Shown: positions 8,539 to 33,453 of the stretch, one piece after another
Numbering within the stretch: the first letter of the stretch is position 1
How the letters are laid out: every line of letters starts with the position of its first letter
Assembly (NCBI RefSeq): GCF_024710765.1
Contig: NZ_JANJUE010000009.1
Coordinates: forward strand, 1-40,328
Direction of reading: 5' to 3'
DNA: 40,328 bases
DNA from: Pseudoxanthomonas sp.
Lineage (GTDB): Bacteria; Pseudomonadota; Gammaproteobacteria; Xanthomonadales; Xanthomonadaceae
Position numbers and translations under genes: made by a program
Notes under the pieces: generated by a model
Database searches by the model: none
What the model saw: the letters and a program-made list of their open reading frames with translations, nothing else
Told to the model about the DNA's origin: nothing

Positions 8539-9441
8539 TCATGTGGTGCCGCCGCCGCGGATTTCGCCGAGGACCTTGGAAAACATCGAGATGAACTGGG
8601 TCGCCGCCTTGGACGGTGGCCGGTCCTCCAGGTACACGCATTGCACGTTGAAGCGCAGCGGGGGCGCGAACGGGCGGAAGTCCATCGTGTCGTCGACGCT
8701 GGCGCGCGCGGTGAATTCATCCACCACCGCCATGCCCGCGCCGCAGCGGGTCAGCGCGGCGGCCACGTAGAACGTCTGGTTGGAAACCACTTCGCGCACG
8801 CTGATGCTCTGGCGCTGGATTTCGCGATTGAACAGTTCGCCGACCGGGCCGCCCATGGTCAGGCCCACCATGTCCTGGCCATCGAGCTGCTTGAGCGAAA
8901 CGCGCTCGGCGACGTGCGGCATGCTGTCCTTGCGGAACAACAGGGTCAGTTCCGCGCTATCGAGGTCGCGCCGGCGGACGCGGGGATGCGAAGGCGGGTC
9001 GTAGGCGATGGCGATGTCGCAGGTGCGTTCGTACAACGATTCGAACAGGGCATCGTGGTGCAGCGTCTGCACCTCGAAGGTCGCGTCGGGGTATTGCTTG
9101 CGGAAACGCGCGATGGCCAGTGGCGCGGCGTGCAAGCCCAGGGAAGGCACGACCGCCAGCCGGATGTGGCTGGCCGTGAGGCTGCGCAGGTTGCCGACGG
9201 TCTTCTGCAGTGACGTCAGGCGGTTGAACACTTCCGAGACTTCGATGAACAACGCGTGCGCTTCGTCGGTGGCGATCAATCGCCCGCGCACCAGCCGGAA
9301 CAGCTCCAGCCCAAGCTGCTGCTGGGTATGGTGCAGCACCTTGCTCACCGATGGCTGCGAGACGTGCAGTGACCGCGCCGCCGCGCTGATCGAGCCGGTG
9401 GTGTAGACGGCGTGGAAGACTTCGATCTGTCGAAAACGCAT
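8539..9441 (-). CDS. LysR-family regulator, candidate D-glutamate/gamma-glutamyl regulon controller
   Basis: A 300-residue LysR protein. The HTH spans about residues 3-60 (GSISAAARSLHVSQPSVSKVLHH), followed by a periplasmic-binding-like effector domain to about residue 290. It lies 60 bp downstream of ggt on the same strand, so it is probably cotranscribed. A LysR-type palindrome at 11344-11360 lies upstream of ggt, and three related sites lie before the M23, TonB and dgcN genes. I infer that this protein binds them all and may correspond to the LysR regulator (DgcR) described for D-glutamate catabolism, but sequence alone does not prove either point. Confidence 0.93.
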   Translation of the reverse strand: MRFRQIEVFHAVYTTGSISAAARSLHVSQPSVSKVLHHTQQQLGLELFRLVRGRLIATDEAHALFIEVSEVFNRLTSLQKTVGNLRSLTASHIRLAVVPSLGLHAAPLAIARFRKQYPDATFEVQTLHHDALFESLYERTCDIAIAYDPPSHPRVRRRDLDSAELTLLFRKDSMPHVAERVSLKQLDGQDMVGLTMGGPVGELFNREIQRQSISVREVVSNQTFYVAAALTRCGAGMAVVDEFTARASVDDTMDFRPFAPPLRFNVQCVYLEDRPPSKAATQFISMFSKVLGEIRGGGTT

Positions 9442-9501
9442 GCTTTTTCCGAAGAAGGACTGGATGCCAGTATCGCCGTCGCGTCCGGCGATGTCCCGTG
9501 C

Positions 9502-11238
9502 CTAGAGTCCTGCCGCGACGCCCTCTCGGCGCGGATCGGCGGCGCCGGCCAGCTTGCCGTCGCGCCATTCCACGCCATGCAGGCCCGAATCCTCGCCCGA
9601 CCCGGCGACGATGTCGACGCCCAGCTTCGACAACGCCTCGCGCAGGCCGGGTGCAAAGGCATCGGCTTCGCCGTTGAAGTTCTTCCCGCGCGCGACGAGG
9701 TTTGGCAACGCGACCGCCTGTTGCAACGGCATTTCCCAGTACAGCCAGCCGACCAGGGTCTTGGCCACGTAGGCGGGAATGGCGTTGCCGCCGGGTGAAC
9801 CGAGCGCACCGACCAGGCGGCCCTCTTGGTCGAGCACGATCACCGGCGACATCGACGAACGCGGGCGCTTGCCCGGCGCGATCGCGTTGGCCGCGCCGGC
9901 GGCCTCGCCCCATGAAAAGTCGGTCAACTGGTTGTTCAGGAACATGCCGCCGACCGTGCGCCCCGAACCGAAGAATGATTCGATGGTCGTGGTCATCGAG
10001 ACCGCGTTGCCCGCCGCATCCACCACCACCAGGTGGCTGGTGCCGGCGGGCTCGTCGGTGGCGTCGCCACCACGCCAGGGCGCGCCACCGGGTTCACCAT
10101 GCAGGGGCGGCCTGGCGGCGGCATGCGAGCCGATCAGTGCCCGCCGCGCGGAGATGTAATCCGGCGCGAGCAAACCGTCGACGGGCACGTCGACGAAGCC
10201 TGGGTCGCCGACGTAATGGTCGCGGTCGGCATAGGCGAGTCGACTGGCTTCGGCGAACAACAGCCACGCGCGGGGATCGTCCGGGCCGCGGTCGGCGATG
10301 TCGGTGCCGTCGAGGATCATCATCAGCTGCAGCAAGCCCACTCCGCTGGCCGGCGGCGGTGGCACGCAGACCGTGTAGACGCGCAATGGGCGGCAGATCG
10401 GGGCAGTGTGTTCGGCGACCTGCTGCTGGAGGTCTTCCGCGGTGACGCGGGCTCCGTTCGGCGCCTCGGCCAAGCGCGCGATGAGCGCGTCAGCGAGCGG
10501 ACCGGTGCGCAGAGCCTCGGCGCCACGCGCGGCCACCACGCGAAGGCTTTCCGCATAGGCGGGATTGCGGAAGGTGTCCCCGGGCTGCAACTGCGTGCCG
10601 TCTTCGCGCGCAAACATCGCCTTCACGTCTGGCGCCGACGCTTGCGGGAACGTGCCGGCGATGTGCCGGTGCATGCGCGGCGTCACCGCGAAACCCTGTT
10701 CGGCGCGTCGCTCGGCCGCACCGAACAGGCCCGACCATGCCAGCCTGCCGTGCGCCGCGTGGGCCATGGCCAGCGCCGGCAAGGTACCGGGCACGCCGGT
10801 CGCGTGGCCGCTGAGCATCGCGTCGCCGCGCGACAACGGTCGGCCTTCGGCATCGTTGAACATCCCGGGTCCGGCGGAGGCCGGCGCGCGCTCGCGGCCG
10901 ATGTAGCTGTCGACGCGCCCGGAGGTGGCGTCGTAATGCAACAGGATCGCCCCGCCCATCAGGCCGGAGCTCTGCGGTTCGACCAGGCCCAGCATCGCCT
11001 GTACCGCAACCGCGGCATCGATCGCGCTGCCACCGCGCCGCAGCACGTCCAGCCCGGCTTCCGTGGCCAGCGGATGCGCGCTGGCAACGAAACCGGTGGT
11101 GGCCGGGGCTGGCGGGACCGCGGACGCCGACGGCACGACGGGGGGGCGTGCGCCACCGGCACAGGCGGCGAGGGTGGAGAGCGCGACCGCAACGAGCAAT
11201 CCGTGCAGTGCGCGGGGGAGGTTGGAAGTGAAGGCCAT
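9502..11238 (-). CDS. ggt: Gamma-glutamyltransferase, lipoprotein form
   Basis: A 578-residue gamma-glutamyltranspeptidase/hydrolase that cleaves gamma-glutamyl bonds outside the cytoplasm. ATG 11238 places a lipoprotein signal at residues 8-26 (LSTLAAC, C26 lipidated); a longer in-frame start at 11289 is less likely. The proenzyme cuts itself before the nucleophile T400 (PAGTSHLVVVDAAGN). Other family marks are GRERAP near residue 115, the PRSSMSP segment and the LGSPGGN oxyanion region. The large and small subunits would be about 375 and 179 residues after signal removal. It probably heads an operon with the downstream lysR. A second, divergent ggt lies 6 kb away. Confidence 0.95.
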   Translation of the reverse strand: MAFTSNLPRALHGLLVAVALSTLAACAGGARPPVVPSASAVPPAPATTGFVASAHPLATEAGLDVLRRGGSAIDAAVAVQAMLGLVEPQSSGLMGGAILLHYDATSGRVDSYIGRERAPASAGPGMFNDAEGRPLSRGDAMLSGHATGVPGTLPALAMAHAAHGRLAWSGLFGAAERRAEQGFAVTPRMHRHIAGTFPQASAPDVKAMFAREDGTQLQPGDTFRNPAYAESLRVVAARGAEALRTGPLADALIARLAEAPNGARVTAEDLQQQVAEHTAPICRPLRVYTVCVPPPPASGVGLLQLMMILDGTDIADRGPDDPRAWLLFAEASRLAYADRDHYVGDPGFVDVPVDGLLAPDYISARRALIGSHAAARPPLHGEPGGAPWRGGDATDEPAGTSHLVVVDAAGNAVSMTTTIESFFGSGRTVGGMFLNNQLTDFSWGEAAGAANAIAPGKRPRSSMSPVIVLDQEGRLVGALGSPGGNAIPAYVAKTLVGWLYWEMPLQQAVALPNLVARGKNFNGEADAFAPGLREALSKLGVDIVAGSGEDSGLHGVEWRDGKLAGAADPRREGVAAGL

Positions 11239-11343
11239 GAACGCGGGTCCCCGGTGGAACGGATATGCGCGTCGGCGGGTGACGCGCATGCGACAGGGTA
11301 TCTCCGTCGTCGCGCGCGCACCCGACCTTTTGATGAGGTCCAG

Positions 11344-11360
11344 GATAGCCCGGGGTTATG
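11344..11360. promoter_or_regulatory. LysR-type operator before ggt-lysR
   Basis: GATAGCCCGGGGTTATG has the same layout as three other sites in the window (six-base arms, five-base centre, T-N11-A). It is the weakest copy: the arms differ from a perfect palindrome at the outer base and at one inner base. It lies 106 bp upstream of the ggt start, where a LysR regulator binding its own operon would be expected. Confidence 0.55.
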
Positions 11361-11553
11361 GCATGAATCTTCCGCCGACGCGTCCCGCGATTGCAGGACG
11401 CGTGCAGTGTTCTCCAGCGGATTCATGGGGCGAGGTGCTTTCCACCACCTGCCCCGGGCCCGTCATCGACAATGATGCGGGACAGCGATCGCCGGCCATG
11501 GGAGGTCCGTGGCGGACGCGGCCTGCCCCAAGCCGTCGTTTGTGAACCGGAGT

Positions 11554-11571: not shown

Positions 11572-11581
11572 CTGGGCGGGT

Positions 11582-12502
11582 TCAGTGAGCTTGTACCGGA
11601 ACGATCTGCTTCCATGCCCAACGGAAAAGGTCCTTGCTGTCCGTGAAGCGGGATTGGTCCGAGGAGGAGCCCAGGGTGACGACGATGAGGCGCCTGCCCG
11701 CATGGGTCCCGCTGGCCACCAGGCAGTTCTCGGCCAACTTCGTACTGCCGGTCTTGATGCCGTCGTAGCCGTCGATTTCCAGGAGACGATTGGTGTTCGC
11801 CCAGGCCAGCCGACGCAGGCTGCCGTCCGGTAGATGGACCCTGATGGCCTTGTCCGTGGTGGCCACCACTTCGCGGAACAAAGGGTGCTTGCGGGCGGCC
11901 ACCGCCAGGGTGACGAGGTCGCGGGCGGTGGTGGTTCGATCCTCCGGGGTGCCCCCGTCCCCGTAGGGGCTGCGGTAGTGCGTACCGTTCATGCCAAGCC
12001 GCCTGGCCGTGCGATTCATCTCCGCGATGAAATTCACGCGCGTTGCGTTGGCCTCCGTCTTGGCGTTTTCCGGAGTCTCGTCGCCGGGCGCCGCAAGGCG
12101 CGCATTGAAATGCTCGGCAAAGGCGTTGCCCATGTCGTTGCCCGACGGCAGCATCAGGGCATACAGACCGTCGCGGATCCCGATTTTCTCGCCTTGCCTG
12201 AGTCCGGCAATGGAGCCGGTGGTGGATGCGGCCAGCGGTGAAACCTCTATCTGTTCGTCGAGCACCGCGGCATCCCGGGCCAGTTCCAGGACCACGTAGG
12301 CGGCCATCATCTTGGTGGTGCTCGCCGCCTTGCGTGGTTCATCGGGCAGGTGCGCCCAAAGCAGTTTGCCGCTGTCCGCATCGGCGATGGCCCAGGAACG
12401 GGCGGTGACCACCGGCGGTGCCTCCGGATTTCCCGCCGCGTAGGCGATATTCGCGACGGCCAGCAGGCCGGTGACCAGGGTGACGAAAACGTGTCGGATC
12501 AT
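11582..12502 (-). CDS. Exported D-alanyl-D-alanine carboxypeptidase (S11 family)
   Basis: A 306-residue serine peptidase of the PBP5/PBP6/DacC group, which trims the terminal D-Ala from peptidoglycan stem peptides. The signal peptide covers residues 1-22 (ends AYAAG). The three penicillin-binding motifs are present: S61-T-T-K64, S120-G-N122 and K250-T-G252. At about 306 residues it is shorter than PBP5 and lacks most of the C-terminal beta domain and the amphipathic membrane anchor, so it is probably periplasmic or secreted. The start at 12502 was chosen to expose the signal peptide. It lies 52 bp downstream of the M23 peptidase gene and is probably cotranscribed with it. Confidence 0.92.
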   Translation of the reverse strand: MIRHVFVTLVTGLLAVANIAYAAGNPEAPPVVTARSWAIADADSGKLLWAHLPDEPRKAASTTKMMAAYVVLELARDAAVLDEQIEVSPLAASTTGSIAGLRQGEKIGIRDGLYALMLPSGNDMGNAFAEHFNARLAAPGDETPENAKTEANATRVNFIAEMNRTARRLGMNGTHYRSPYGDGGTPEDRTTTARDLVTLAVAARKHPLFREVVATTDKAIRVHLPDGSLRRLAWANTNRLLEIDGYDGIKTGSTKLAENCLVASGTHAGRRLIVVTLGSSSDQSRFTDSKDLFRWAWKQIVPVQAH

Positions 12503-12554: not shown

Positions 12555-13820
12555 TTATTGCGATCCTGCCGTCTGCCACCCCCGTATCCATCCGATCTGG
12601 CCACTGAACTGGAACTTGTACCAGCCGTTGCGGGTGCCGGTGACGGTGATTCCACTTCCCAGGCCAAGGGTGCCGATGATGGTGGATAGATCGCGCATGT
12701 CCTCGCCGCCGACCACCTGGTTCGCATAGACGGATATGCTGCCCCTTATGACCCTGACGCGGAAGTTGTCCGTCAGGGTGGCGGGTACCCCGACCCAGCC
12801 ATACTTGTTTCCGTAGTAGCCGTTCGAGCACCCGCCCACGTCACTCGCGTTGTCCGACGCGTCGGTGCTTCGGTTGCTCGTGCCGTTGCACCACCACTGC
12901 ACCTTGTACCATTCGCTACCTGAGAAATCGAACCCCGTCAGCAACGTGCCCGCGGGCACCACGCCGATCTCGGGATGCGCGGCGCTTGGGCCTTTTCTGA
13001 TGCTGATGACGCTCGCGCTGGTGACACCGAAGATATTGGATCGGGAAGGGACGGTGGAGGAATGCGTGATCCAGCCCAGGCTGTTGTCAGGCAGCATCAC
13101 CTTGTACGCACCAGCCTGGCTGTCGATGACATCCAGATCGGTCCCGTAGGCAACGGAGCCTGTGATCGTGGACAGGGCGCTCGAGGAGTAGATGCTGGCG
13201 CCCAGGGGTTCCGACACGACCACATCGAACGTTCTGGCCGCTTCCCCCGCCAGGGGCGCCAGTCCGGAGAACACGCCGGGAATGAACTTGCCGTTCTTGA
13301 TCCAGTCGCCCCGGCTGATCGCGGGAATCGACATGAGCTCGCTGGTGGTGCTTCCGTCCGGTGTCCGCCTGATCGAGAAGTGCACGTGGGGACCGCCGAG
13401 ATCCGCGTTTCCAACCCGTCCCACGTAGCCGATCACCGTGCCGCCGCCGGCGGTGGCGTCGACGACGTCGTTGACCTGGACGACCGGCTGCTCGATGAAA
13501 TGGGTATAGCTCGTCGTATACGTGTATCCAGTCCCGGGATGGCTGATGGTGACACTCCATCCGCCGTTGTTGGTATAGGCGACCTTGGTGACGGTGCCGG
13601 ACCGGGCCGGTCGAACGGGCGTGTAATGCGGTGCGGACAAGTCGGCGGTGCCGTTATGGGGCTGGCCGCTTTGATAGGTATCGCTCGTCGCGACCCATCC
13701 ATCGATCGGCCACAGGAATTGCTCTCCGGCACCCGGGTCCGCGGGGACGTGCTGGGAAAAGCATACTGCCGGCCAGGACATCGCCGTCAGTGCAAGTGCG
13801 AGGACGACGCGATTCTTCAT
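12555..13820 (-). CDS. Secreted M23 (LytM) metallopeptidase with SH3b repeats
   Basis: A 421-residue secreted protein. The signal peptide is residues 1-22 (ends CFSQ). The LytM-type zinc peptidase domain covers about residues 33-160, with ligands H55 and D60 (HNGTAD) and H147 in HVH (145-147), plus the family YTHF histidine at 107. The first motif has four residues between H and D, not the more common three. Three SH3b-like units follow, each closing in a GW motif (GWITHSS, GWVGVPA, GWIRGWQ), and would bind cell wall. Such enzymes cut peptide cross-links in peptidoglycan. The start at 13820 exposes the signal peptide. A LysR-type site lies 280 bp upstream. Confidence 0.9.
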   Translation of the reverse strand: MKNRVVLALALTAMSWPAVCFSQHVPADPGAGEQFLWPIDGWVATSDTYQSGQPHNGTADLSAPHYTPVRPARSGTVTKVAYTNNGGWSVTISHPGTGYTYTTSYTHFIEQPVVQVNDVVDATAGGGTVIGYVGRVGNADLGGPHVHFSIRRTPDGSTTSELMSIPAISRGDWIKNGKFIPGVFSGLAPLAGEAARTFDVVVSEPLGASIYSSSALSTITGSVAYGTDLDVIDSQAGAYKVMLPDNSLGWITHSSTVPSRSNIFGVTSASVISIRKGPSAAHPEIGVVPAGTLLTGFDFSGSEWYKVQWWCNGTSNRSTDASDNASDVGGCSNGYYGNKYGWVGVPATLTDNFRVRVIRGSISVYANQVVGGEDMRDLSTIIGTLGLGSGITVTGTRNGWYKFQFSGQIGWIRGWQTAGSQ

Positions 13821-14099: not shown

Positions 14100-14116
14100 C
14101 ATAGCATCAGGCTATG
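14100..14116. promoter_or_regulatory. LysR-type operator (M23 side)
   Basis: CATAGCATCAGGCTATG has perfect six-base inverted arms around ATCAG and contains T-N11-A. It differs from the site at 14367 at one base. It lies 280 bp upstream of the M23 peptidase start on the minus strand. Confidence 0.75.
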
Positions 14117-14366: not shown

Positions 14367-14383
14367 CATAGCATAAGGCTATG
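14367..14383. promoter_or_regulatory. LysR-type operator (TonB receptor side)
   Basis: CATAGCATAAGGCTATG has perfect six-base inverted arms and T-N11-A. It lies 147 bp upstream of the TonB receptor start. With the site at 14100 it could allow DNA looping or separate control of the two divergent genes. Confidence 0.75.
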
Positions 14384-14530
14384 GCCTGGCAATGCATTTG
14401 TACTGGTGGCAATGGGGATAACGTCTTAGCGTTCGGCCATGGGAGCAGAAGCTCCAACGAGGCTCGGCCGTGACGCGAAGTGCGGCCGACCGATTCCAAA
14501 TACATTCAAAAACGGTCGGGGGTGGTCGTG

Positions 14531-17460: not shown

Positions 17461-19200
17461 GTGGGATCCATCAAGCGCCTTGAAGCGGCCTTGCACCGGT
17501 ACGCAGTGCTGCTGGCATTCGCGCTGCTCCCCTCGGCGGCGGCCACGGCGCAGACCGTGCAGTTGCTCAATTACGAAGAGATCCACAAGCCGGTGGTCTC
17601 CGAAGGCGGCATGGTGGTCAGCCAGAGCGGCTACGCCAGCGATGTCGGCGCGCAAGTGTTGCGTGACGGCGGCAACGCGGTCGACGCGGCGGTGGCGATG
17701 GGCTTCACCATGGCCGTGACCTTGCCGCGCGCCGGCAACATCGGCGGCGACGGCTACCTGTTGATCCGCCTGGCCGATGGCCGTGCCGCGGCGGTCGACT
17801 TCCGCTCGATGGCGCCGGCACTGGCGAAGCTGGATTTATATGTAGACCAGACGGGCAAGCTGCAAGGGCACAACGCCGGTATCCGTACCGCGGGCGTTCC
17901 GGGCACCGTTGCCGGCCTCGCGCTGGCGCACCGGAAGTACGGACGGTTGCCATGGAAACGACTGCTGGCGCCGGCGATCCGGTTGGCGGACGAAGGCATG
18001 GTGCTGACGCCTGACGAAGCCTTCGCCCTGGACTGGGGCAGGCGGCGTCTGGCGCGCAGTGATGCCGGAGCGAAGGTGTTTCTGCACGGGGACGGTTCCG
18101 CGCTGCGCGCCGGCGAGCGGCTGGTGCAATCGGACCTGGCGTGGTCGCTGCGGCAGATAGCCGAACACGGCGCGGATGCGTTTTACCGCGGCGAGATCGC
18201 CAATCGAATCGACGCAGGCATGCGCGCGAACGGCGGTCTGCTGCGCAAGGAGGATCTTGCCGCCTATCGCGCGATCGAACGCGAGCCATTGCGGTCCAGC
18301 TACCGTGGCCATGAGCTGCTGACCATGCCGCCATCCAGCGGCGGCGGGCCCGGCGTGGCGATGACCCTGAACATCCTGGAGAACTTCGACCTGGCATCGA
18401 TGGGCGCGGGTTCGGCCGATGCCCTGCACCTGATCGCCGAGGCCAGCAAGCGCACATGGCGCGACCGGCAGGCTTATGTGCGCGATCCGGCGACCGGACG
18501 GATACCGCTGGAAGGTATCGTGTCCAAGGCCTATGGTGCGTCACGAGCGAAGGAAATCCGCATGGATCGCGCGACGCCGGCCAGGCAGGTGCGCGCCGGC
18601 GACCTCTGGGACCAGGAAAGCCATGAGACCACGCAGTTCTCGGCGGCGGACCGCGAAGGCAACGTGGTCAGCGCGACCTATACGATCGGTGCGGACTTCG
18701 GTTCCGGAATGATGATGGAAGGCACCGGTTTCCTGCTCGGCAACTTGATCGGCAATTTTTCGCTGCAGGCGCAGCTGGACGCCGCCCACGCGGGAAGCAA
18801 GCCACCGGCGAACGCACTGCGCGCCGGCGCCCGCCCGGTGTCGAGCATGTCGCCGACGATCCTGCTGCGCGACGGCAAGCCATGGCTGGTCACCGGCAGT
18901 CCGGGCGGCAACACCATCCCGGGCACGGTCGTGCAGATGATCGTGGACGTGGTGGATTTCGGCATGAACATCGCCGAAGCCACCAGTTTCCCGCGCATCC
19001 ACCAGACCATGGGCGCGGACGGCGAACTCCAGATCGAACGCGGCTTCAGCCCGGACACCTTGCGCATCCTGCGCGGGCGCGGCCACGCCATCAAACAGGG
19101 CCAGACCATCGGCAGCACGCAGACCTTGCTGCTGACGGGGAATCACGTCGAAGGCGCGGCCGATCCGCGCCGGCCCGGTGCGGCGGCCGCGGTCCAGTGA
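17461..19200 (+). CDS. ggt: Gamma-glutamyltransferase, secreted form
   Basis: A 579-residue gamma-glutamyltransferase/hydrolase. It starts with GTG 17461 after a GGGGAG ribosome-binding site. The signal peptide covers residues 1-30 (ends ATAQ). The self-cleavage and nucleophile site is T390 in SHETTQFSAADREGN, matching the family TTHYSVVD segment. Also present are DFRSMAP (equivalent to the substrate-binding REMAP arginine), PVSSMSPT and TGSPGGN. It resembles E. coli Ggt more than the lipoprotein copy at 9502-11238 does, so the two are probably not recent duplicates. It lies downstream of the TonB receptor and may be transcribed by read-through past the hairpin. Confidence 0.95.
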   Translation: MGSIKRLEAALHRYAVLLAFALLPSAAATAQTVQLLNYEEIHKPVVSEGGMVVSQSGYASDVGAQVLRDGGNAVDAAVAMGFTMAVTLPRAGNIGGDGYLLIRLADGRAAAVDFRSMAPALAKLDLYVDQTGKLQGHNAGIRTAGVPGTVAGLALAHRKYGRLPWKRLLAPAIRLADEGMVLTPDEAFALDWGRRRLARSDAGAKVFLHGDGSALRAGERLVQSDLAWSLRQIAEHGADAFYRGEIANRIDAGMRANGGLLRKEDLAAYRAIEREPLRSSYRGHELLTMPPSSGGGPGVAMTLNILENFDLASMGAGSADALHLIAEASKRTWRDRQAYVRDPATGRIPLEGIVSKAYGASRAKEIRMDRATPARQVRAGDLWDQESHETTQFSAADREGNVVSATYTIGADFGSGMMMEGTGFLLGNLIGNFSLQAQLDAAHAGSKPPANALRAGARPVSSMSPTILLRDGKPWLVTGSPGGNTIPGTVVQMIVDVVDFGMNIAEATSFPRIHQTMGADGELQIERGFSPDTLRILRGRGHAIKQGQTIGSTQTLLLTGNHVEGAADPRRPGAAAAVQ

Positions 19201-19411
19201 CGGGCCCCGGGGTTGCCGGGCATGCCGGATTCCGCCTCCCCGCTTCACGGTGCGCCCGACCGCGGCGACCGCCTGGCGGCGCCCCGGCACCGCGACTGAT
19301 CGGCCCTTCATTGTGTTGTCGAACCACTTTGCGACGACAGCGCGGCGAGTGCCCTGCCATGCGGCGCATGCCGGTCGGCGCCGCGAACCCTCAACCCCGC
19401 CGGAGGTGACC

Positions 19412-20584
19412 ATGAACCGATGCATCCGCCACGATCGCGCGCTTTCGCTGTGCGCGGCTTTCCTGTTGCTCCTGCTGAGCCTGCCGGCGCTGGCCGGCGA
19501 GATCGAGGACCGCCTGCACTCGCTGATGCGGGAATACGACACCGTCGGCCTGGCGGTAGTGGTGGTCCGCGACAACGGCATCGTGTATCGCAACAGCCTC
19601 GGCTGGAAGGATCGCGATGCGAAGATCCCGCTGGAACAGGACGACCTGTTCCGGATCGCATCGATTTCCAAGTCGTTCGCGGCCGTTTCGATCCTGCAGC
19701 TGGTCGAGCAGGGCCGCCTGTCGCTGGACGACGACGCCGGCACGCTGGTTGGGTTCCCGGTACGCAATCCCGCGTTCCCGGACACGCCAATCACGCTGCG
19801 GATGTTGCTGAACCATACCTCGTCGATCACCGACGCCCAGAAGTACAAGAGCCTGGACGTCATCAATCCGGACACCAACGCAAACTGGCGGGGCAGCTAC
19901 GCCGGCCGCGCGCCGGGCGAAACCTACGAATACTCCAACCTCGGCTACAACATGATCGGCACCATCGTCGAACGCATGTCGGGCCAGCGCTACGACGCCT
20001 ACGTCAAGCAGCACGTGCTGGATCGGCTCGGGCTGCGAGCCGGCTACCTGCCCGAGGCGCTGGACGCGAACCGCTTCGCGCAGATCTACCTGTGGAACGG
20101 GGAGCGGCAGGCGTACCTGCGTTCCGAGGCGGCCTATGCGCCGCTGGGCAAGCGCCTGGACGGTTATCGCCCGGGCTACGACACGCCGATGTTCTCCCCG
20201 ACCGGCGGACTCAAGATATCCGCGCCTGACCTGGCCACCTGGATGCTGCTGCACATGAACCGCGGCGAGTGGAACGGCGTGCGCCTGCTCTCGGCCGAGC
20301 ACTCGGCGCTGATGCAGACGCGATCGACCCCCTCCGACGAGAACGGCGACTACGGCATGGCCATCCGCCTGGACCGGGCGCTGATTCCCGGCGTGGAAAT
20401 GATCGGGCACACCGGTTCGGCCTACGGCCTGTTCAGTTCCATGTATTTCAATCCGGAAAAGAAGTACGGCTTCGTGGTGATCACCAACGGGGCCCGCGAC
20501 GTCCGGCTGCGCACCGAAGTCAATCGGGCCCTGTACCAGCACTTCATCGTCGATGCGGCGCCACCGGCGCAAGCATCGAACTGA
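19412..20584 (+). CDS. Exported serine hydrolase, beta-lactamase/D-peptidase fold (S12-like)
   Basis: A 390-residue protein of the class C beta-lactamase / R61 D,D-peptidase / D-aminopeptidase superfamily. Signal peptide residues 1-28 (ends ALAGE). Active-site motifs: S84-I-S-K87, Y174-S-N176 and H333-T-G335. The HTG in place of KTG is typical of esterase, D-aminopeptidase and D,D-peptidase relatives, not of true AmpC enzymes. ATG 19412 follows GGAGGTG. It lies 211 bp after ggt on the same strand. In this setting a D-amino-acid peptidase or amidase role fits, but substrate cannot be read from sequence. Confidence 0.88.
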   Translation: MNRCIRHDRALSLCAAFLLLLLSLPALAGEIEDRLHSLMREYDTVGLAVVVVRDNGIVYRNSLGWKDRDAKIPLEQDDLFRIASISKSFAAVSILQLVEQGRLSLDDDAGTLVGFPVRNPAFPDTPITLRMLLNHTSSITDAQKYKSLDVINPDTNANWRGSYAGRAPGETYEYSNLGYNMIGTIVERMSGQRYDAYVKQHVLDRLGLRAGYLPEALDANRFAQIYLWNGERQAYLRSEAAYAPLGKRLDGYRPGYDTPMFSPTGGLKISAPDLATWMLLHMNRGEWNGVRLLSAEHSALMQTRSTPSDENGDYGMAIRLDRALIPGVEMIGHTGSAYGLFSSMYFNPEKKYGFVVITNGARDVRLRTEVNRALYQHFIVDAAPPAQASN

Positions 20585-20740: not shown

Positions 20741-21934
20741 TCATTTCCAGAAGTTGATGAATCCGGTGATGATGAGCGCGTTGGTGAAGTCGATGAAGAA
20801 CGCGCCGACCAGCGGCGCGACGAGGAAGGCGCGCGGAGCGGCGCCATAGCGCTCCACCAGGGTGCGCATCACCGCCATCGCATTGGCGGTGGTGCCGAGC
20901 ATGAAGCCGATGAAGCCGCCGCCCATCACCGCCGCGTCGTAATCGCGGCCCATCACCCGGAAGATCACCCCGCAGAACGCCACCACCATGATCACCTGCA
21001 GCCCCAGGTTGACCATCAGCGGCAGCGCCAGCCCGGCCAGCTCCCATAGTTTCAGGTTCATCAGCGCCACCGACAGGAACAGCGCCAAACAGACGTTGCC
21101 GATCAGGTCGGTGGTCGGCACCGACATGCCGATCCAGCCGGTCTGGTCGTCGATGTTGCGGATGACCGCGCCCACCAACATCGCCCCGACGTAGGCGGGC
21201 AGGGTGACGCCGAAGGACGAGATCAGGCCGCTGACCCAACTGCCCGCCCACATGGCGACCAGGATGACGACGATGCTCTTCAGCGCGCCGAATTCGCGCT
21301 GCGCATCGGTCTGCATCGGCAGCGTGGTTTCTTCACCGGGCGCGGTATGGTCCTGCGGCCGCGTGGATACCAGCCGGAAGCGGCGGATCAGCACGGTGAT
21401 CGCGGGGCCACCGACCAGTCCGCCCAGCACGATGCCGGCCATCGCCGCGGCCACCGCGACCGATTCGGCGCCTTTCACGCCAGCCGCCTCGAACAGCGGC
21501 GCGAACGCCAGGCCGGTGGCGGGGCCGCCGGTCAGCGTGGTCGAGCCGGCCAGTACCCCGAACAGTGGATGCAGGTCGAAACCCGTCGCGACCGCCATGC
21601 CCAGCAGGTTCTGCGCCACCGCGAACATGCTGGCCAGGATCAGGAACACCAGCACCTGCTTGCCGCTGATCTTCAACAGGCGCAGGCTGGCGTTGACCCC
21701 GATGGTGGTGAAGAACGCGATCATCAGCGGGTTCTGCAGGCTGGTGTCGAGCACGAACAGGGTGGCGCCGCGATGATGCGCGAACCAGGCCGCCAACGCG
21801 AATACCAGTCCGCCGATGACCGGCGGCGGCAGGTTGTAACGCCCCAGGACAGGAATGACGCGGCACAGCGCGTAACCCAGGAACAGGGCGAGCCCGGCGA
21901 AAGCCAGGGTCTGGACGGCATCGAGTTGCAGCAC
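20741..21934 (-). CDS. gltS: Sodium/glutamate symporter GltS
   Basis: A 397-residue inner-membrane symporter of the ESS family, close in length to E. coli GltS (about 400). It has two homologous hydrophobic halves with re-entrant loop segments (STTLTGGPATGLAFA and GTTANAMAVM are the characteristic glycine-rich stretches). Family members import glutamate with sodium; E. coli GltS also accepts D-glutamate. The start is GTG 21934, five bases after a strong GAGGAGG. It is the last gene of the dgcN-dgcA-deacylase-gltS run, 50 bp after the deacylase, which fits uptake of glutamate released outside the cytoplasm. Confidence 0.95.
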   Translation of the reverse strand: MLQLDAVQTLAFAGLALFLGYALCRVIPVLGRYNLPPPVIGGLVFALAAWFAHHRGATLFVLDTSLQNPLMIAFFTTIGVNASLRLLKISGKQVLVFLILASMFAVAQNLLGMAVATGFDLHPLFGVLAGSTTLTGGPATGLAFAPLFEAAGVKGAESVAVAAAMAGIVLGGLVGGPAITVLIRRFRLVSTRPQDHTAPGEETTLPMQTDAQREFGALKSIVVILVAMWAGSWVSGLISSFGVTLPAYVGAMLVGAVIRNIDDQTGWIGMSVPTTDLIGNVCLALFLSVALMNLKLWELAGLALPLMVNLGLQVIMVVAFCGVIFRVMGRDYDAAVMGGGFIGFMLGTTANAMAVMRTLVERYGAAPRAFLVAPLVGAFFIDFTNALIITGFINFWK

Positions 21935-21984: not shown

Positions 21985-23658
21985 TCACGGGCAGGTGCCG
22001 GATGGCGGACGATGCTGCAGCACCTTCCCCGGCAATGCATCGGTCGCCTGGCCGTCGACGATCATCGGCGTGCCGTTGACGAACAGGTGGACGACACCTT
22101 CCGACAGGACGTGCGGATGCACGTAGTCGGCCTTCGGCGCATAGGTGTCCGGGTTGAACACCAGCACGTCGGCGAATTGCCCGGCGCGCAGGAAGCCCCG
22201 ATCCTCGATGCCGAAGGTCGCGGCCGTCAACCCCGAGGATCGGTGGATGAACGCGGCCAGGTCGATCACGTGGTCGGTCTTCACGAAGCGCGCGTACTTT
22301 TCCGGGAAGGTGGCGTACTGGCGCGGATGGCCGTCGCCGCCGTCCGACGCGGTCATCACCCACGGTTGGCGCATGAGCCGGTCCACGTCGTCGCGCCGCA
22401 TGTTGAACGAGGCGATCCGTTGCGCCGAGCCGATCGGACCGGTGCCGCCTTCGCCGATGATGCGCAGCGCGGCTTCGATGGGATCGACGCCGGCCTGGTC
22501 GGCGTAGCGTTGCAGGGTGAGCGCGCTCCACGGCCAGCCGGTGCCGGTCATGAGGATCGAATCGGCGCCGCCACGACGCTTGAGGTTGTCGCGCATCTCG
22601 TCGCGGATGCGCTGGGCGGTGGCCGGGTCGGCGAGGCGCTTGAACAGGGCCGGACGTCCGCCATCCACGGCCCAGCGCGGCAGCAGCGCGGAGCCGAGGC
22701 CGGTCGAGGACGCCAGCCAGGGATACTGGTCGGCGGTCACCGCCTGGCCTTCGGCGCGCGCGCGCTCGATGCGCGCGATCACGTCGACGGATTGGCCGTG
22801 CACGTCCGCGCCCAGCGCCTTGATGTGGGCGAAGTGCACCGGCAGGCCGGCGCGCCTGCCGATCGCCAGTGCCTCCTCGACCGAGCCCATCAGGCCGATG
22901 CTGTAGTTGGATTCGTCGCGCTGGTGGCTGTCGTACACGCCGCCGCGCACGGCCGCTTCGCGGGCCAGCGCGACCACTTCGTCGGTGGTGGCGAAACTCT
23001 GCGGGGCATAGAACAGGCCGGTGGACAGGCCCAGCGCGCCCTCGCACATGGCCTTGGCGACCAGGTCGCGCATGGCCTGCAGTTCCCGTGCATCGGGCGC
23101 GCGCGCGTCCTGGCCCAGCACCCGCGCACGTACGGGTCCCAGCCCGACGTAGGCGGCGACGTTGATACCGATGCCCGCGGCCTGCAGCCTGGCGCGATCC
23201 TCGGCGATCTCGGGTTTGCCGTTGCCGTCGATGCCGATGAAGACCGTGGTCACGCCCTGGTGCAGCCACGGCAGGATGCGCCGCATCGCCGGATCCCGCG
23301 AGCGCAGGTAGGTCTCCGGATGGGTGTGCGAGTCGATCAGGCCGGGCGACACGACCATGCCGGTGGCGTCGATCCGGCGTGCTGCGCGGTAGCGCGCGCG
23401 CAGGCCGGGGCCGACATCGAGGATGCGGTCGCCGCGGATGGCGACATCGGCCACGCGGCCCGGGCCTTCGCCACCATCGAACAACAGCCCACCGAAGATC
23501 AGCGTGTCCGCCTCCTCGGCGGGAACGGCCGGCGTGACCTGCGCCACGCGCGGACCGGCGCAACCGGCCAGCAGCAGCAAGACGGCAGAGACGGAGCGTG
23601 CCAACCCGCGTTGCGGCGATGCGATCTCCGGCGCGCGGGAAGGCTTGCGATCGGTCAT
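21985..23658 (-). CDS. N-acyl-D-amino-acid deacylase, lipoprotein
   Basis: A 557-residue amidohydrolase of the D-aminoacylase family, which removes an acyl group from N-acyl-D-amino acids, N-acyl-D-glutamate being one known substrate class. A lipoprotein signal ends LLLAGC, so C33 is probably lipidated and the enzyme faces the periplasm or outer surface. Metal ligands include H111 and H113 (DSHTHPE). Further family motifs are HQRDESNY, HFAHIKALG and the late ASDGGDGHPR segment. The start overlaps the dgcA stop by ATGA. Many D-aminoacylases are cytoplasmic, so the lipoprotein form beside a glutamate importer suggests release of D-Glu before uptake, which is inference. Confidence 0.93.
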   Translation of the reverse strand: MTDRKPSRAPEIASPQRGLARSVSAVLLLLAGCAGPRVAQVTPAVPAEEADTLIFGGLLFDGGEGPGRVADVAIRGDRILDVGPGLRARYRAARRIDATGMVVSPGLIDSHTHPETYLRSRDPAMRRILPWLHQGVTTVFIGIDGNGKPEIAEDRARLQAAGIGINVAAYVGLGPVRARVLGQDARAPDARELQAMRDLVAKAMCEGALGLSTGLFYAPQSFATTDEVVALAREAAVRGGVYDSHQRDESNYSIGLMGSVEEALAIGRRAGLPVHFAHIKALGADVHGQSVDVIARIERARAEGQAVTADQYPWLASSTGLGSALLPRWAVDGGRPALFKRLADPATAQRIRDEMRDNLKRRGGADSILMTGTGWPWSALTLQRYADQAGVDPIEAALRIIGEGGTGPIGSAQRIASFNMRRDDVDRLMRQPWVMTASDGGDGHPRQYATFPEKYARFVKTDHVIDLAAFIHRSSGLTAATFGIEDRGFLRAGQFADVLVFNPDTYAPKADYVHPHVLSEGVVHLFVNGTPMIVDGQATDALPGKVLQHRPPSGTCP

Positions 23659-24665
23659 GCGCTACCGGTCTCGTACAGGTGCTTGCCGCCGCCCCAGAGC
23701 GTTGCCGCCGGTGGTTGCAGCAGGCCGTCGCGCATCACCGCGCCGCCGGGGTGATCGTGCTTCAGCCATAGCGGGCCGTCGAGGTCGACGAATTCGGCGT
23801 GGCGGGCGATGTGCCAGGCGGGCGCGATCGCCAGCGAGGAGCTGATCATGCAGCCGACCATCACCCCGAAACCCTGCGCGCGGGCCGCGCCCAGCAGATC
23901 CAGCGCGGTGGTCAGGCCGCCGGTCTTGTCCAGCTTGATGTTGATCACCTGGTAGCGCCCCTGCAGGCGCGGCAGGTCGGACGCGACGTGGCAGGACTCG
24001 TCGGCGCACAGGCGCGCGACCGAGTCGAAACCGGACAGGGCTTCGTCCTCGCCCGCCGGCAGGGGTTGCTCGATCAGGTCGATGCGGGTTTCGGCCAGCA
24101 CCGGTTGCAGCGAACGCAGCAGTTCGAGGTTCCAGCTTTCGTTCGGATCGACGATCAGGCGCGCGTTCGGCAATTCGCTGCGCACGGCGCGGACCTGCGC
24201 GGCCGGATCGACGGCATCGACCTTGATCTTGACCAAGTCGAGGTGCGCCAGCGCGCGCGCGGCGCTGGCCATGCGTTCGGGGGTATCCAGGCCCACGGTT
24301 TGCGCGCTGATCAGCGGCGGCAGGGTTTCCGGCTGGCCGAGCAGGGCCGCGACCGATACGCCCGCCTGTCGCGATTCGAGGTCCCACAGCGCGCAATCCA
24401 GCGCATTGCGCGCGGCGCCCGGAGGCAACAGGTCGCGCAACTGCCGGCGTTCGAAGCCATCGCCGATGGCCCGCGAAAGCGTGTTCGCCTCGTCGAGTAC
24501 CGATGCCACGCTCTCGTTGTAGCGGGCGTAGGGCAGGGATTCGCCGCGGCCGGTGAACCCGTTGCTGCGGATCGTCGCTTCCACCACTTCGGCCGAGGTG
24601 CGTACGCCGCGCGAGATGCGGAAAGGCGTGGCGAGGGGGTGGCTGACGTGCGCCAGGTTCAGCAC
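23655..24665 (-). CDS. dgcA: Enolase-superfamily epimerase: N-acetyl-D-glutamate racemase DgcA or L-Ala-D/L-Glu epimerase
   Basis: A 336-residue enolase-superfamily enzyme of the muconate-lactonizing/dipeptide-epimerase type. Catalytic features: K146-I-K148 (general base), metal ligands D173 (DPNESW), E199 (EQPL) and D222 (ADES), and the opposite base K247 (KLDKTGG). Start is GTG 24665 in the overlap GTGCTGA with the dgcN stop, so the long upstream extension of the open frame is not real. Direct pairing with a DUF1611/DgcN gene favours DgcA, which converts N-acetyl-D-Glu to N-acetyl-L-Glu. The close relative YcjG, an Ala-Glu epimerase of peptidoglycan recycling, remains an alternative, and either fits the locus. 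Confidence 0.92.
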   Translation of the reverse strand: MLNLAHVSHPLATPFRISRGVRTSAEVVEATIRSNGFTGRGESLPYARYNESVASVLDEANTLSRAIGDGFERRQLRDLLPPGAARNALDCALWDLESRQAGVSVAALLGQPETLPPLISAQTVGLDTPERMASAARALAHLDLVKIKVDAVDPAAQVRAVRSELPNARLIVDPNESWNLELLRSLQPVLAETRIDLIEQPLPAGEDEALSGFDSVARLCADESCHVASDLPRLQGRYQVINIKLDKTGGLTTALDLLGAARAQGFGVMVGCMISSSLAIAPAWHIARHAEFVDLDGPLWLKHDHPGGAVMRDGLLQPPAATLWGGGKHLYETGSA

Positions 24666-25705
24666 GGGAAGGCTTCCAGCAGCCGGTCGATGATGCGTGC
24701 GGTGCCGTCGCGCACGGGATCCTGCACCGGCAGGCCGAGCAGGTCCTCGGCGTCGCGGCAGGCGCGCGCGGCCCCGGCGTCGTCCAGTTTCGAGGTGTTC
24801 AACGCCACGCCCACCGCGATCACGGCCGGATTGGTCAGGCGCGCGGTGGCGAGGTTCGCTTCCAGCGTGGTGCGCAGGTCCGGTACCGGATAGTGCTTGA
24901 GGCCGCGCATGTGCGGGCGGCCCGGCTCGTGGGTCAACACCAGCGCGTCGGGCTGGGCGCCGTGCAGCAGGCCGGTCGACACGCCGGCGAAGGAGGGATG
25001 GAACAGCGAGCCCTGGCCCTCGATCAAATCCCAGCCGCCATCGTGGCGATCGGGCGAGAGCCATTCGATACCGCCGGAAATGAAGTCGGCGACCACCGCG
25101 TCGATCGGTATGCCGCGCCCGGCGATGAAGATGCCGGTCTGGCCGGTGGCGCGGAAATCGGCCTTCAGGCCGCGCGCGCGCATTTCGGTTTCCAGCGACA
25201 GCGTGGTGTACATCTTGCCGGTCGAACAATCGGTACCGACGGTCAGCAGCCGGCGCCCGGCGCGCTTGAGGCCATTGCCCACCGGCGTGGCCGGCGGATT
25301 GCGCGCATCGAACAGGTGCTTGCCGTTGCGGCGCGCGGCTTCGACGATCTGCGGATGCGCGGTCAGGCGCTCATGCAGGCCGGAGGCGACGTTCATGCCC
25401 GCGTCGAGCGCGGCGACGATGTCCGCCACCGTTTCCGGGCCGAACCGGCCGCCGGCATTGGCCACGCCGACGATCATGGTGTTGGCGCCGGCCGCGCGCG
25501 CTTCGGCGAAACCCATGTCCGGCACGTGCACGCTGGTCCTGCAGTCGGGGCCACGGAATTGGCCCACGCACCATTCGGGGCGGAACTGCACCAGCCCGCG
25601 CGCGGTCTTGGCGGCGAGATCGTCCGGTGCGTTGCCCAGGTACAGCAGGAACGGCGGCGGCCAGTGTGAATCGGCGAGGGAGGCAGACGGGGGGAGCGGG
25701 TTCAT
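24659..25705 (-). CDS. dgcN: DUF1611 protein, D-glutamate N-acetyltransferase DgcN
   Basis: A 348-residue DUF1611 protein. The N-terminal domain (about residues 18-140) has a Rossmann-like pattern. The C-terminal P-loop-like domain carries GTDCSTGK (157-164). From memory of recent work on D-glutamate use in marine Proteobacteria and haloarchaea, this family acetylates D-Glu to N-acetyl-D-Glu, which DgcA then racemises. Adjacency to the epimerase, overlapping by 7 nt, supports this. It is the first gene of the four-gene operon. The ATG at 25705 has a weak ribosome-binding site, and a perfect LysR-type palindrome lies 82 bp upstream. Confidence 0.92.
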   Translation of the reverse strand: MNPLPPSASLADSHWPPPFLLYLGNAPDDLAAKTARGLVQFRPEWCVGQFRGPDCRTSVHVPDMGFAEARAAGANTMIVGVANAGGRFGPETVADIVAALDAGMNVASGLHERLTAHPQIVEAARRNGKHLFDARNPPATPVGNGLKRAGRRLLTVGTDCSTGKMYTTLSLETEMRARGLKADFRATGQTGIFIAGRGIPIDAVVADFISGGIEWLSPDRHDGGWDLIEGQGSLFHPSFAGVSTGLLHGAQPDALVLTHEPGRPHMRGLKHYPVPDLRTTLEANLATARLTNPAVIAVGVALNTSKLDDAGAARACRDAEDLLGLPVQDPVRDGTARIIDRLLEAFPC

Positions 25706-26017
25706 GGGGGCGAATGGGTCGAAAAGGGTTCATGGCCATCTTCGTGCCTGCCCGGTGCCGGCGCCATTGAAAAGACGCCGACCACGCATAACTGCAGGTT
25801 ATGGCTGGGGCACGTCGCCGTGACGAACGGGCGGGTCGCCGGACGTCCACGCGCACGCCTGCGAGGGGTTGGGTCACTGCTGGCCTGAGTCGGGCACCGA
25901 TGCGGGGACCACGACATATCAATATGCCCGTCGGAGATCGTGCCTGCGAATGAGCAGCCTACGTATCATCGTCCCACCCGGGCGGTGTGCTCCGGCGCGT
26001 GGGAGCGGTTGCCGGGT
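25706..26017. other. Promoter region of the dgcN operon
   Basis: No gene is seen in these 312 bp between proC and dgcN, both on the minus strand. It contains the operator at 25787-25803 and, further up, a small AT-rich palindromic patch (CATAT-CA-ATATG near 25916) that could belong to a promoter. No clear terminator for proC is visible. Confidence 0.55.
25787..25803. promoter_or_regulatory. LysR-type operator before dgcN
   Basis: CATAACTGCAGGTTATG has perfect six-base inverted arms with T-N11-A and matches the sites at 14100 and 14367 in layout and in the central AGG. It lies 82 bp upstream of the dgcN start, a usual distance for a LysR activator. Confidence 0.75.
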
Positions 26018-33449: not shown

Positions 33450-33453
33450 CGCG

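What the first reader, a model, noticed from the sequence alone, without database searches (positions are those of the whole stretch)
8539..25803. A 17-kb LysR regulon that looks like a complete D-glutamate / gamma-glutamyl harvesting system
Seen: two gamma-glutamyltransferases, a secreted M23 wall peptidase with SH3b repeats, a D,D-carboxypeptidase, an S12-type hydrolase, a TonB receptor, and an operon of dgcN, dgcA, a lipoprotein N-acyl-D-amino-acid deacylase and gltS, all in one block with a shared LysR-type operator. Known: GGT cleaves gamma-glutamyl bonds; GltS imports glutamate; DgcN/DgcA convert D-Glu to N-acetyl-L-Glu. Inferred: the block dismantles peptidoglycan stem peptides or poly-gamma-D-glutamate, frees D-Glu outside the cytoplasm, imports it and inverts it. 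The combination of wall hydrolysis, receptor, double GGT and DgcNA is not a system I know as described.
Basis: partly seen in the sequence, partly recalled or inferred. Interest (0 to 1): 0.88.

Follow-up and report, generated by a model that had tools for sequence, protein, structure and literature searches.

The report
D-glutamate scavenging gene regulon
A block of bacterial genes, tied together by one DNA switch sequence, looks like a kit for cutting the unusual "mirror-image" glutamate out of other cells' walls or polymers, importing it and turning it into ordinary glutamate; the parts are known singly, and I found no description of this combination.

Summary
A LysR-type palindrome (core ATARC-N5-GYTAT) lies in all three promoter regions of the block; the genome holds it at four places, all here. 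DgcN, DgcA and GltS pass NCBIfam equivalog cut-offs.

Comparative genomics supports one system. LysR, two GGTs, TonB receptor, gltS, a D-aminoacylase-like lipoprotein, dgcA and dgcN are linked in one same-genus relative and four Luteimonas genomes. A reduced set, with a non-homologous (SDF) symporter in place of GltS, is shared with Sphingomonadales and Caulobacterales.

One part weakens: the M23 peptidase and S11 carboxypeptidase occur in none of these relatives' blocks; wall cutting is a local addition, though behind an operator. Other relatives lack GGTs or dgcA at the locus.

New detail: the two GGTs differ. One is lid-less and canonical; the other has a rebuilt amino-group pocket (Asp433 to Asn).

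Best reading: a regulon that frees D-Glu from gamma-D-glutamyl/N-acyl-D-Glu oligomers, most likely peptidoglycan stem peptides, imports it and inverts it by DgcN/DgcA. No activity was measured; the substrate is inferred.

The parts
8539..9441 (-). LysR-type regulator, presumed to bind the shared palindrome (called LysR2 here)
   Evidence: Pfam HTH_1 + LysR_substrate; relatives 62-76% identical in G037, G083, G107, G131 and Luteimonas loci, 41-51% beside dgcN in sphingomonad/Caulobacter-type loci
9502..11238 (-). GGTa: gamma-glutamyltransferase, lipoprotein-like N-terminus (my reading), lid-less Bacillus type, canonical alpha-amino pocket
   Evidence: PF01019 444 bits; TIGR00066 330 bits, below its cut-off 358; best solved relative 4y23; residues
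11345..11359 (.). operator 1, 107 bases upstream of GGTa-LysR2
11582..12502 (-). S11 D,D-carboxypeptidase-like protein (STTK, SGN, KTG present); lineage-specific insert
   Evidence: Pfam; motifs; a better-scoring S11 lies elsewhere in the genome; absent from relatives' loci
12555..13820 (-). secreted M23 peptidase with SH3 domains; lineage-specific insert
   Evidence: Pfam; HNGTAD and HVH motifs; weak LytM match; no match at 1e-40 in 197 other family genomes
14101..14115 (.). operator 2, 281 bases upstream of M23 (facing M23-S11)
14368..14382 (.). operator 3, upstream of TonB receptor-GGTb-S12
14531..17332 (+). TonB-dependent receptor (start uncertain, 14480-14615)
   Evidence: Pfam Plug + barrel; relatives over 300 bits are 29-67% identical, others more distant
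17461..19200 (+). GGTb: secreted gamma-glutamyltransferase-like hydrolase with altered alpha-amino pocket (positions 411/430/432/433 = G/L/G/N)
   Evidence: PF01019 523 bits; TIGR00066 492 bits, cut-off 358; alignment to E. coli GGT; conservation
19406..20584 (+). S12 (beta-lactamase fold) secreted hydrolase, D-peptidase/carboxypeptidase type
   Evidence: Pfam; solved relatives include an alkaline D-peptidase and D-Ala-D-Ala carboxypeptidases; SISK/YSN/HTG
20741..21934 (-). gltS, sodium/glutamate symporter
   Evidence: PF03616 342 bits; TIGR00210 over cut-off
21985..23658 (-). AmH3: D-aminoacylase-like amidohydrolase with a lipobox-like N-terminus (LLAGC)
   Evidence: Pfam; D-aminoacylase 1m7j 218 bits, N-acyl-D-glutamate deacylase 3gip 179 bits; residues
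23655..24665 (-). dgcA, N-acetyl-D-Glu racemase
   Evidence: NF042940 432 bits, cut-off 400; L-Ala-D/L-Glu epimerase model 308, below cut-off 343
24659..25705 (-). dgcN, D-Glu N-acetyltransferase (DUF1611)
   Evidence: NF041892 505 bits, cut-off 480; solved relative 7xrj 347 bits
25788..25802 (.). operator 4, 83 bases upstream of dgcN

Best explanation
A LysR-controlled catabolic regulon for bound D-glutamate. Extracytoplasmic hydrolases free D-Glu from oligomers in which its amino group is acylated and its gamma-carboxyl is amide-linked. GGTa is read as a hydrolase of gamma-D-glutamyl residues with a free amine. GGTb, whose amine pocket is rebuilt, is read as a hydrolase of gamma-D-glutamyl residues whose amine is blocked. 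The D-aminoacylase-like lipoprotein is read as removing the N-acyl (for instance L-Ala) group, and the S12 enzyme as trimming D-peptides. The TonB receptor brings oligomers through the outer membrane; GltS takes free D-Glu through the inner membrane; DgcN acetylates it; DgcA racemises N-acetyl-D-Glu to N-acetyl-L-Glu, which enters the L-Glu/arginine pools. The LysR protein switches the units on through a 17-base palindrome. The likeliest natural substrate is peptidoglycan stem peptide (L-Ala-gamma-D-Glu-mDAP); in this strain an M23 peptidase and an S11 carboxypeptidase were added behind an operator to open walls. Shown by computation: gene identities, operator, linkage, pocket residues. Inferred: every enzymatic step, that LysR2 is the protein bound to the palindrome, induction, and the substrate.
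For: DgcN, DgcA and GltS over equivalog cut-offs. Operator: 4 of 4 genome places in the block; 67 exact sites against 1 for the reversed pattern in 80 named dgcN loci, 36 of 80 dgcN upstream windows hit, 29 of 37 loci with a LysR2 of >=40% identity hit against 7 of 43 without; 33 of 52 sites in 15 related genomes lie within 20 kb of a dgcN (my count); 26 sites against 29 reversed in 15 of the genus genomes without a window-like locus. C and G flanks outside the search pattern are conserved in 42 and 45 of 67 sites. Linked block in G037 and four Luteimonas genomes. Of the 37 named loci with LysR2 of >=40%, 34 have AmH3, 32 an SDF-type symporter, one GltS, none both symporters (SDF family itself checked for one protein). 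Partners in relatives that fit D-amino acids or peptidoglycan: lysA over cut-off in 2 loci and a third by position, S13 D,D-carboxypeptidase, M19 dipeptidase, DAO-type oxidoreductase; D-amino acid dehydrogenase-, D-amino-acid transaminase- and AmpG-like matches are all below their NCBIfam cut-offs.
Against: No transcript, binding or enzyme data. AmH3 has Asp where characterised D-aminoacylases have a metal-binding Cys; the anchor Ser is not kept in most relatives; its side-chain loop is not BbDam-like. lysA is a partner in three distant loci only, none in the window. M23/S11 are not conserved. G003 and G173 loci have no GGT; G131, G107 and G083 loci have no dgcA; G203 has a lone dgcN and no operator. 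Receptors vary widely, so the ligand may differ between strains. GGTa fails the TIGR00066 cut-off. L059, L063, L064, L227 and L228 carry only a canonical GGT, so the GGTb change is not general. 8 of 37 loci with LysR2 of >=40% lack an exact site just upstream of dgcN; three close DgcN loci of the genus (L047, L048, L051) have no exact site at all.
Confidence: 0.65

Rival explanations
1. The polymer is poly-gamma-(D-)glutamate from Bacillus-like neighbours rather than peptidoglycan: lid-less GGTa as exo-hydrolase, GGTb (blocked-amine type) as endo-hydrolase, AmH3 splitting the last gamma-Glu-D-Glu bond.
For: GGTa has the short, lid-less loop, and lid-less GGTs are the ones proposed to act on PGA (PMC8062742, passages); B. 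[quoted passage not shown] An internal PGA residue has a blocked amine, which fits GGTb.
Against: GGTb has the loop length of lid-bearing GGTs, said to disfavour polymers. Relatives' loci carry partners that fit peptidoglycan (LysA, S13, M19, AmpG-like), and the window adds M23 and S11, which PGA does not need. No dedicated PGA hydrolase family was among the Pfam hits of the block.
Confidence: 0.17
2. A general regulon for N-acyl-D-amino acids and D-peptides (antibiotic-type or cyclic peptides), with D-Glu only one of several products.
For: AmH3 has Leu, the AfDam residue, at the ungapped position of the BbDam Arg; penicillin-amidase, M81/MlrC and DAO-type partners occur in relatives; receptors vary.
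Against: The intracellular end is specific for D-Glu (DgcN/DgcA over cut-offs, GltS or SDF symporter); two GGTs point to gamma-glutamyl bonds.
Confidence: 0.12
3. GGTs serve ordinary glutathione or gamma-L-glutamyl peptide use, and sit beside dgcNA by accident of linkage.
For: GGTs are common: all 38 genus genomes searched have at least one, and some window-like dgc loci lack a GGT.
Against: The third GGT of this genome is elsewhere, canonical, and without window-block relatives around it; both block GGTs lie in transcription units with an upstream operator and stay linked in five other genomes.
Confidence: 0.06

Closest known systems
DgcN-DgcA-DgcR D-glutamate catabolic pathway (marine Proteobacteria, haloarchaea; original paper not held, recalled; pathway seen in passages of PMC10845958 and PMC12363236)
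   Same: dgcN and dgcA orthologues over NCBIfam cut-offs, adjacent genes, a regulator in the block
   Different: Here extended outwards by secreted hydrolases, two GGTs, a TonB receptor and a symporter under one palindrome; whether LysR2 is the published DgcR could not be checked
Muropeptide/stem-peptide salvage of E. coli (AmpG, MpaA, L-Ala-D/L-Glu epimerase; recalled)
   Same: Same presumed substrate; enolase-superfamily epimerase/racemase
   Different: There the dipeptide is imported and epimerised; here DgcA beats the epimerase model, and D-Glu would be freed outside the cytoplasm and acetylated
N-acyl-D-glutamate deacylase BbDam (3gip/3giq) and D-aminoacylase AfDam (1m7j)
   Same: Clear homology; two metal His and the Tyr, Lys, Tyr, Asp, Arg anchors conserved
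   Different: Cys metal ligand replaced by Asp; different side-chain loop; anchor Ser not kept in most relatives
Class IV cephalosporin (glutaryl) acylases and E. coli GGT D433N (PMC8062742, passages)
   Same: Asn at position 433 of the GGT fold; loss of the amine-binding Asp
   Different: GGTb is a natural dgc-linked enzyme with further changes at 411, 430 and 432
TonB-linked nutrient clusters, e.g. Caulobacter GlcNAc clusters (PMC13046382, passages)
   Same: Outer-membrane receptor, inner-membrane transporter, catabolic enzymes and local regulator
   Different: LysR-type palindrome instead of GntR-type regulators; D-Glu as product

Membership tests
DgcN-DgcA pathway | DgcN over NF041892 cut-off | tested here: met
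   505.4 against 480
DgcN-DgcA pathway | DgcA over NF042940 cut-off and better than Ala-Glu epimerase | tested here: met
   431.9 against 400; epimerase PRK15129 308.3, below 343
DgcN-DgcA pathway | N-acetyltransferase and racemase activity on D-Glu | not testable with these tools
   no assay
GltS glutamate symporter | TIGR00210 over cut-off | tested here: met
   329.6 against 310.75
Gamma-glutamyltransferase (GGTa) | Thr391, Arg114, Ser462/463, Gly483/484, Asp433 (E. coli numbering, partly recalled) | tested here: met
Gamma-glutamyltransferase (GGTa) | TIGR00066 equivalog cut-off | tested here: not met
   330 against 358; PF01019 passed
Gamma-glutamyltransferase (GGTb) | TIGR00066 equivalog cut-off, Thr391, Arg114 | tested here: met
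   492 against 358; residues
Gamma-glutamyltransferase (GGTb) | Asp433 binding the alpha-amino group | tested here: not met
   Asn in 9 of 9 distinct loci with a GGTb of >=54% identity; L104 (46%) also has Asn but lacks Arg114. Of 29 unlinked GGTs held (28 from other genus genomes, one of this genome; 88 matches exist), 13 keep Arg114 and all 13 have Asp
N-acyl-D-Glu deacylase (BbDam type) | Arg295 contacting the gamma-carboxylate | tested here: inconclusive
   Leu at the ungapped position in 52 of 58 rows, Arg in none; the loop may differ in length, so the alignment is uncertain
Subtype V D-aminoacylase | Cys/His/His metal site | tested here: not met
   both His in 58 of 58; Cys position is Asp in 46, Gly in 10, His in 2 (gappy alignment); without the 10 type-B rows it is Asp in 46 and His in 2 of 48
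Subtype V D-aminoacylase | acetamido and alpha-carboxylate anchors | tested here: inconclusive
   Tyr, Lys, Tyr, Asp and Arg in 58 of 58; the Ser column is Ser in the window but in only 3 of 58; the two Leu were not checked
LysR regulon | T-N11-A palindrome in the promoter regions of all units, with regulator linked | tested here: met
LysR regulon | binding and co-induction | not testable with these tools
   no experiment
AmpG/epimerase muropeptide salvage | AmpG permease and Ala-Glu epimerase in the block | tested here: not met
   neither in the window block; an AmpG-like protein in L085 scores 322 against 350

The most novel reading that the evidence does not exclude
GGTb founds a new class of gamma-glutamyl hydrolase that cleaves gamma-D-glutamyl bonds whose amine is blocked (L-Ala-gamma-D-Glu-mDAP, or internal poly-gamma-D-glutamate), working beside a free-amine GGT and a D-aminoacylase so that D-Glu is cut out of peptidoglycan from both sides before import: an extracellular route of peptidoglycan peptide use, defined by one LysR operator across alpha- and gammaproteobacteria.
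Probability: 0.3. Interest if true: 0.8.

Novelty: new variant of a known kind. Interest (0 to 1): 0.62.

Why it matters
D-Glu in peptidoglycan is a pool of carbon and nitrogen held in bonds that ordinary peptidases do not open (established knowledge, recalled). The DgcN/DgcA pathway explains what happens to free D-Glu inside the cell, but not how it is released. This regulon proposes the outer half, names the operator, and gives two unusual enzymes (GGTb, AmH3) whose substrate can be tested directly in environmental strains. The operator also gives a cheap way to look for further members of the system in other genomes.

Tried and rejected
Wall hydrolases as part of the general system: rejected as a general feature. 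M23 and S11 have no match among the called genes of 123 annotated loci (these include overlapping loci and some without dgc genes) and, by tblastn at 1e-5 over 207 loci, only the window's own loci plus one weak M23 hit (34% over 124 aa, L121) (rows of L236, a window locus, were left out of the print).

DgcA as L-Ala-D/L-Glu epimerase: rejected on model scores. AmH3 as a plain BbDam-type N-acyl-D-Glu deacylase: not supported at the metal Cys, inconclusive at Arg295. Loose operator scan of the window: weak by itself. Type-B dgc loci of the genus (S12, DgcA, POT transporter, amidohydrolase, receptor, DgcN, S12; 10 loci) as members of the same regulon: no exact operator core in any of the 10, and in the one locus tested (L036) DgcN and DgcA fall below the cut-offs.

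The run at 26018-35766 (ProC, S9, hydrolase, FMN-binding, amidase, permease, second receptor) was considered and left out: no operator core there, and no counterpart in the fetched stretches beside the Luteimonas and G037 blocks. lysA as a dgc-specific gene: only partly. In L060, L063 and L064 it is the best-scoring lysA of its genome, with a second over the cut-off elsewhere; but L059's genome also has a high-scoring lysA, at coordinates away from its dgc locus.

Structure prediction and fold searches were not used. Of the literature I saw passages (PMC10845958, PMC8062742, PMC11421214, PMC4497714, PMC12363236, PMC13046382) and, for PMC12017989, passages plus the whole of section 10; other papers only as search listings. 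'No description found' rests on searches of an open-access library (45, 79 and 80 were background on GGT and PGA); the original DgcN paper is not held.

Confidence moved from 0.66 to 0.65 (and a rival from 0.05 to 0.06) for these.
Full report
What is there. NCBIfam puts DgcN (505 bits against 480), DgcA (432 against 400) and GltS (330 against 311) over their equivalog cut-offs; the rival L-Ala-D/L-Glu epimerase model scores 308, under its 343. GGTb passes TIGR00066 (492 against 358) and GGTa does not (330), though PF01019 covers both from position 2 to 512 of 512. The amidohydrolase is closest to solved D-aminoacylases (218 bits), N-acyl-D-glutamate deacylase scoring 179. The window's genus appears to be Pseudoxanthomonas: G003 contig 32 has the length of NZ_LDJL01000007.1, P. 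dokdonensis.

The operator. A palindrome scan of intergenic regions of the window and of one relative showed the same 17-base element, CATARC-N5-GYTATG (one site departs by one outer base), upstream of dgcN, upstream of GGTa-LysR2, and twice in the divergent region between M23-S11 and the receptor operon. In the whole 4.63-Mb genome the 15-base core is found at four places, all of them these; the reversed pattern is found once. This count is partly circular, because the pattern came from these promoters. Further counts: in 80 named loci fetched with DgcN, 67 exact sites against 1 for the reversed pattern, with 36 of the 80 dgcN upstream windows hit; 29 of 37 loci with a LysR2 relative of at least 40% identity are hit, 7 of 43 without (four of those 7 are Luteimonas loci whose LysR2 lies outside the first stretch). 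The flanking C and G, which the core pattern did not specify, are present in 42 and 45 of 67 sites. In 15 genomes chosen because they carry a window-like DgcN or locus there are 52 sites, and by my reading of coordinates 33 lie within 20 kb of a dgcN; G203 has none. In 15 of the genus genomes without a window-like locus there are 26 sites against 29 for the reversed pattern, that is chance level. The loose two-mismatch scan of the window alone is weak: 5 of 100 shuffles do as well.

Linkage in relatives. In G037, of the same genus, the order is LysR2, a DAO-type oxidoreductase, GGTa, receptor, GGTb, S12, gltS, AmH3, dgcA, dgcN, with operators at 6432, 6525 and 18071 of L194. Four Luteimonas genomes carry dgcN, dgcA, AmH3, gltS, receptor, GGTb, GGTa and LysR2 together (L052/L222, L054/L225, L055/L223, L057/L224); S12 is in two of the four. 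Luteimonas salinisoli (L056) shows only the core with LysR2. Reduced forms exist: G003 and G173 have dgcN-dgcA-AmH3-gltS, a distant LysR (28-30%), receptor and S12 but no GGT there; G131 and G107 show only LysR2, gltS and dgcN; G083 lacks dgcA; G203 shows dgcN alone. In 37 of the 80 named loci a LysR2 of at least 40% is present, mostly sphingomonads and Caulobacter relatives: 34 have AmH3, 32 an SDF-type symporter, one GltS, none both. Caulobacter and Brevundimonas loci also hold two GGTs (L084, L086, L104). In the family, 39 of 198 sampled genomes have DgcN at E<=1e-60; in the genus 16 of 38 pass the DUF1611 cut-off, two of them barely, and 10 of the 14 with strong matches carry another arrangement (type B) without the operator core.

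The wall-hydrolase arm. The M23 protein matches none of the other 197 sampled family genomes at 1e-40, and neither it nor S11 is found in the relatives' blocks. G+C there is 0.61-0.66 per kilobase, against 0.64-0.72 in the rest of the block, a modest difference. In G037 the divergent region between GGTa and the receptor holds two operators, one 237 bases from GGTa; in the window M23-S11 sits where GGTa would be, 281 bases from operator 2, and GGTa has its own operator. I read this as an insertion behind an existing operator, which would put wall cutting under the same control. This is inference.

The two GGTs. Aligned to E. coli GGT (numbering partly recalled), GGTb keeps Thr391, Arg114, the Ser pair and the Gly pair but has Gly411, Leu430, Gly432 and Asn433. 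Asn433 is found in all nine distinct loci with a GGTb of at least 54% identity (window, G037, G083, G227-G230, L084, L086); the last two differ at 430 and 432. L104 (46%) has Asn433 but no Arg114. Of 29 unlinked GGTs that I held (88 matches exist in the genus), 13 keep Arg114 and all 13 have Asp433, while 16 belong to a different subfamily without Arg114. In E. coli GGT the D433N change abolishes transpeptidation, keeps about 82% of hydrolysis and gives glutaryl-7-ACA acylase activity; class IV cephalosporin acylases have Asn there (PMC8062742, passages). GGTa has the short loop (15 residues against 23) and the canonical amine pocket; lid-less GGTs are the ones proposed to take large substrates such as poly-gamma-glutamate (same source). 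E. coli GGT accepts D-glutamine as donor (same source), so gamma-D-glutamyl substrates are plausible. Hence the proposal that GGTb cuts gamma-D-Glu whose amine is blocked and GGTa cuts it when the amine is free. Against a general rule: loci L059, L063, L064, L227 and L228 have a single, canonical GGT.

The amidohydrolase. Of 61 rows from the loci, three off-family rows were dropped; [quoted passage not shown] residues as listed in PMC12017989, section 10). The anchor Ser is present in the window but in 3 of 58 rows only; the metal Cys is Asp in 46 of 58; the residue at the ungapped place of BbDam Arg295 is Leu in 52 of 58 and Arg in none, but the loop may differ in length. So it should act on N-acyl-D-amino acids with a free alpha-carboxylate, and its side-chain preference is open; a pocket without that Arg could suit a gamma-substituted D-Glu.

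Which substrate. Peptidoglycan is favoured by partners in relatives: lysA over its cut-off between GGT and S12 in L063 and L064 and, by position, between dgcA and S12 in L060, each in a genome with a second lysA over the cut-off elsewhere; S13 D,D-carboxypeptidase in L085 and L110, M19 dipeptidase in L110, an AmpG-like transporter in L085 below its cut-off, and M23/S11 here. Poly-gamma-glutamate remains possible. A broader D-peptide diet is suggested by penicillin-amidase relatives (17 members by clustering, one scanned by Pfam) and by an M81/MlrC protein at an operator in L229.

Novelty. Each enzyme family is known, and the DgcN/DgcA route is known. The targeted searches of the open-access library (listed in Tried and rejected) found no description of the joined system or of the operator; subscription papers, among them the original DgcN paper, could not be seen. 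I file it as a new variant of a known kind: an outward extension of D-Glu catabolism under one LysR-type operator.

Noticed in passing
L036:10368-11507 (and same place in L037, L038, L040, L042, L043, L045, L046, L049): A 379-aa protein between dgcN and S12 in the genus's other dgc arrangement (9 of 10 such loci), no Pfam or NCBIfam match for the one scanned; 48-90% identical. That arrangement also has a POT-type transporter.
   Followed up: partly
window 26018-35766: Tightly packed minus-strand run: second TonB receptor, amino-acid permease, amidase, FMN-binding protein, alpha/beta hydrolase, S9 peptidase, pyrroline-5-carboxylate reductase. Looks like a separate peptide-use operon; no operator core of this regulon.
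   Followed up: partly
L137-L157 (16 of the 29 loci L132-L160): 16 GGT-fold proteins of the genus lack Arg114 and have Met at position 433: a second GGT-like subfamily of unknown substrate.
   Followed up: no
L068, L075, L079, L085, L110, L130 and others: A ~790-aa family (17 by clustering; the one scanned is a penicillin amidase) stands beside the TonB receptor or the D-aminoacylase in sphingomonad dgc loci, in several with an operator in between.
   Followed up: partly
L229:6260-9168: M81/MlrC-type protein divergent from an unscanned gene that by eye resembles a D-amino-acid transaminase and precedes dgcN, with an operator between; two more operators upstream of a receptor.
   Followed up: partly
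L070, L071, L077, L192, L193, L195: dgcN with gltS but no dgcA found at the locus, which raises the question of what racemises N-acetyl-D-Glu in these strains.
   Followed up: no
L053: A contig binned as Opitutaceae carries a DgcN 79% identical to the window's, with two operators; mis-binned or recently transferred.
   Followed up: no
L234:259-2820: Closest relative of the window's receptor (67%) lies on another contig than dgcN in G083, with an operator-like site 2.2 kb off.
   Followed up: no
window 84-1445 and 36606-40328: A transposase at the left end and a type I restriction-modification set (hsdM, hsdS, start of hsdR) at the right end.
   Followed up: no
window 1584-7074: LysR, alcohol dehydrogenase, alpha/beta hydrolase, MFS transporter, cyclophilin-like and cupin genes; unrelated to this block as far as seen.
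   Followed up: no
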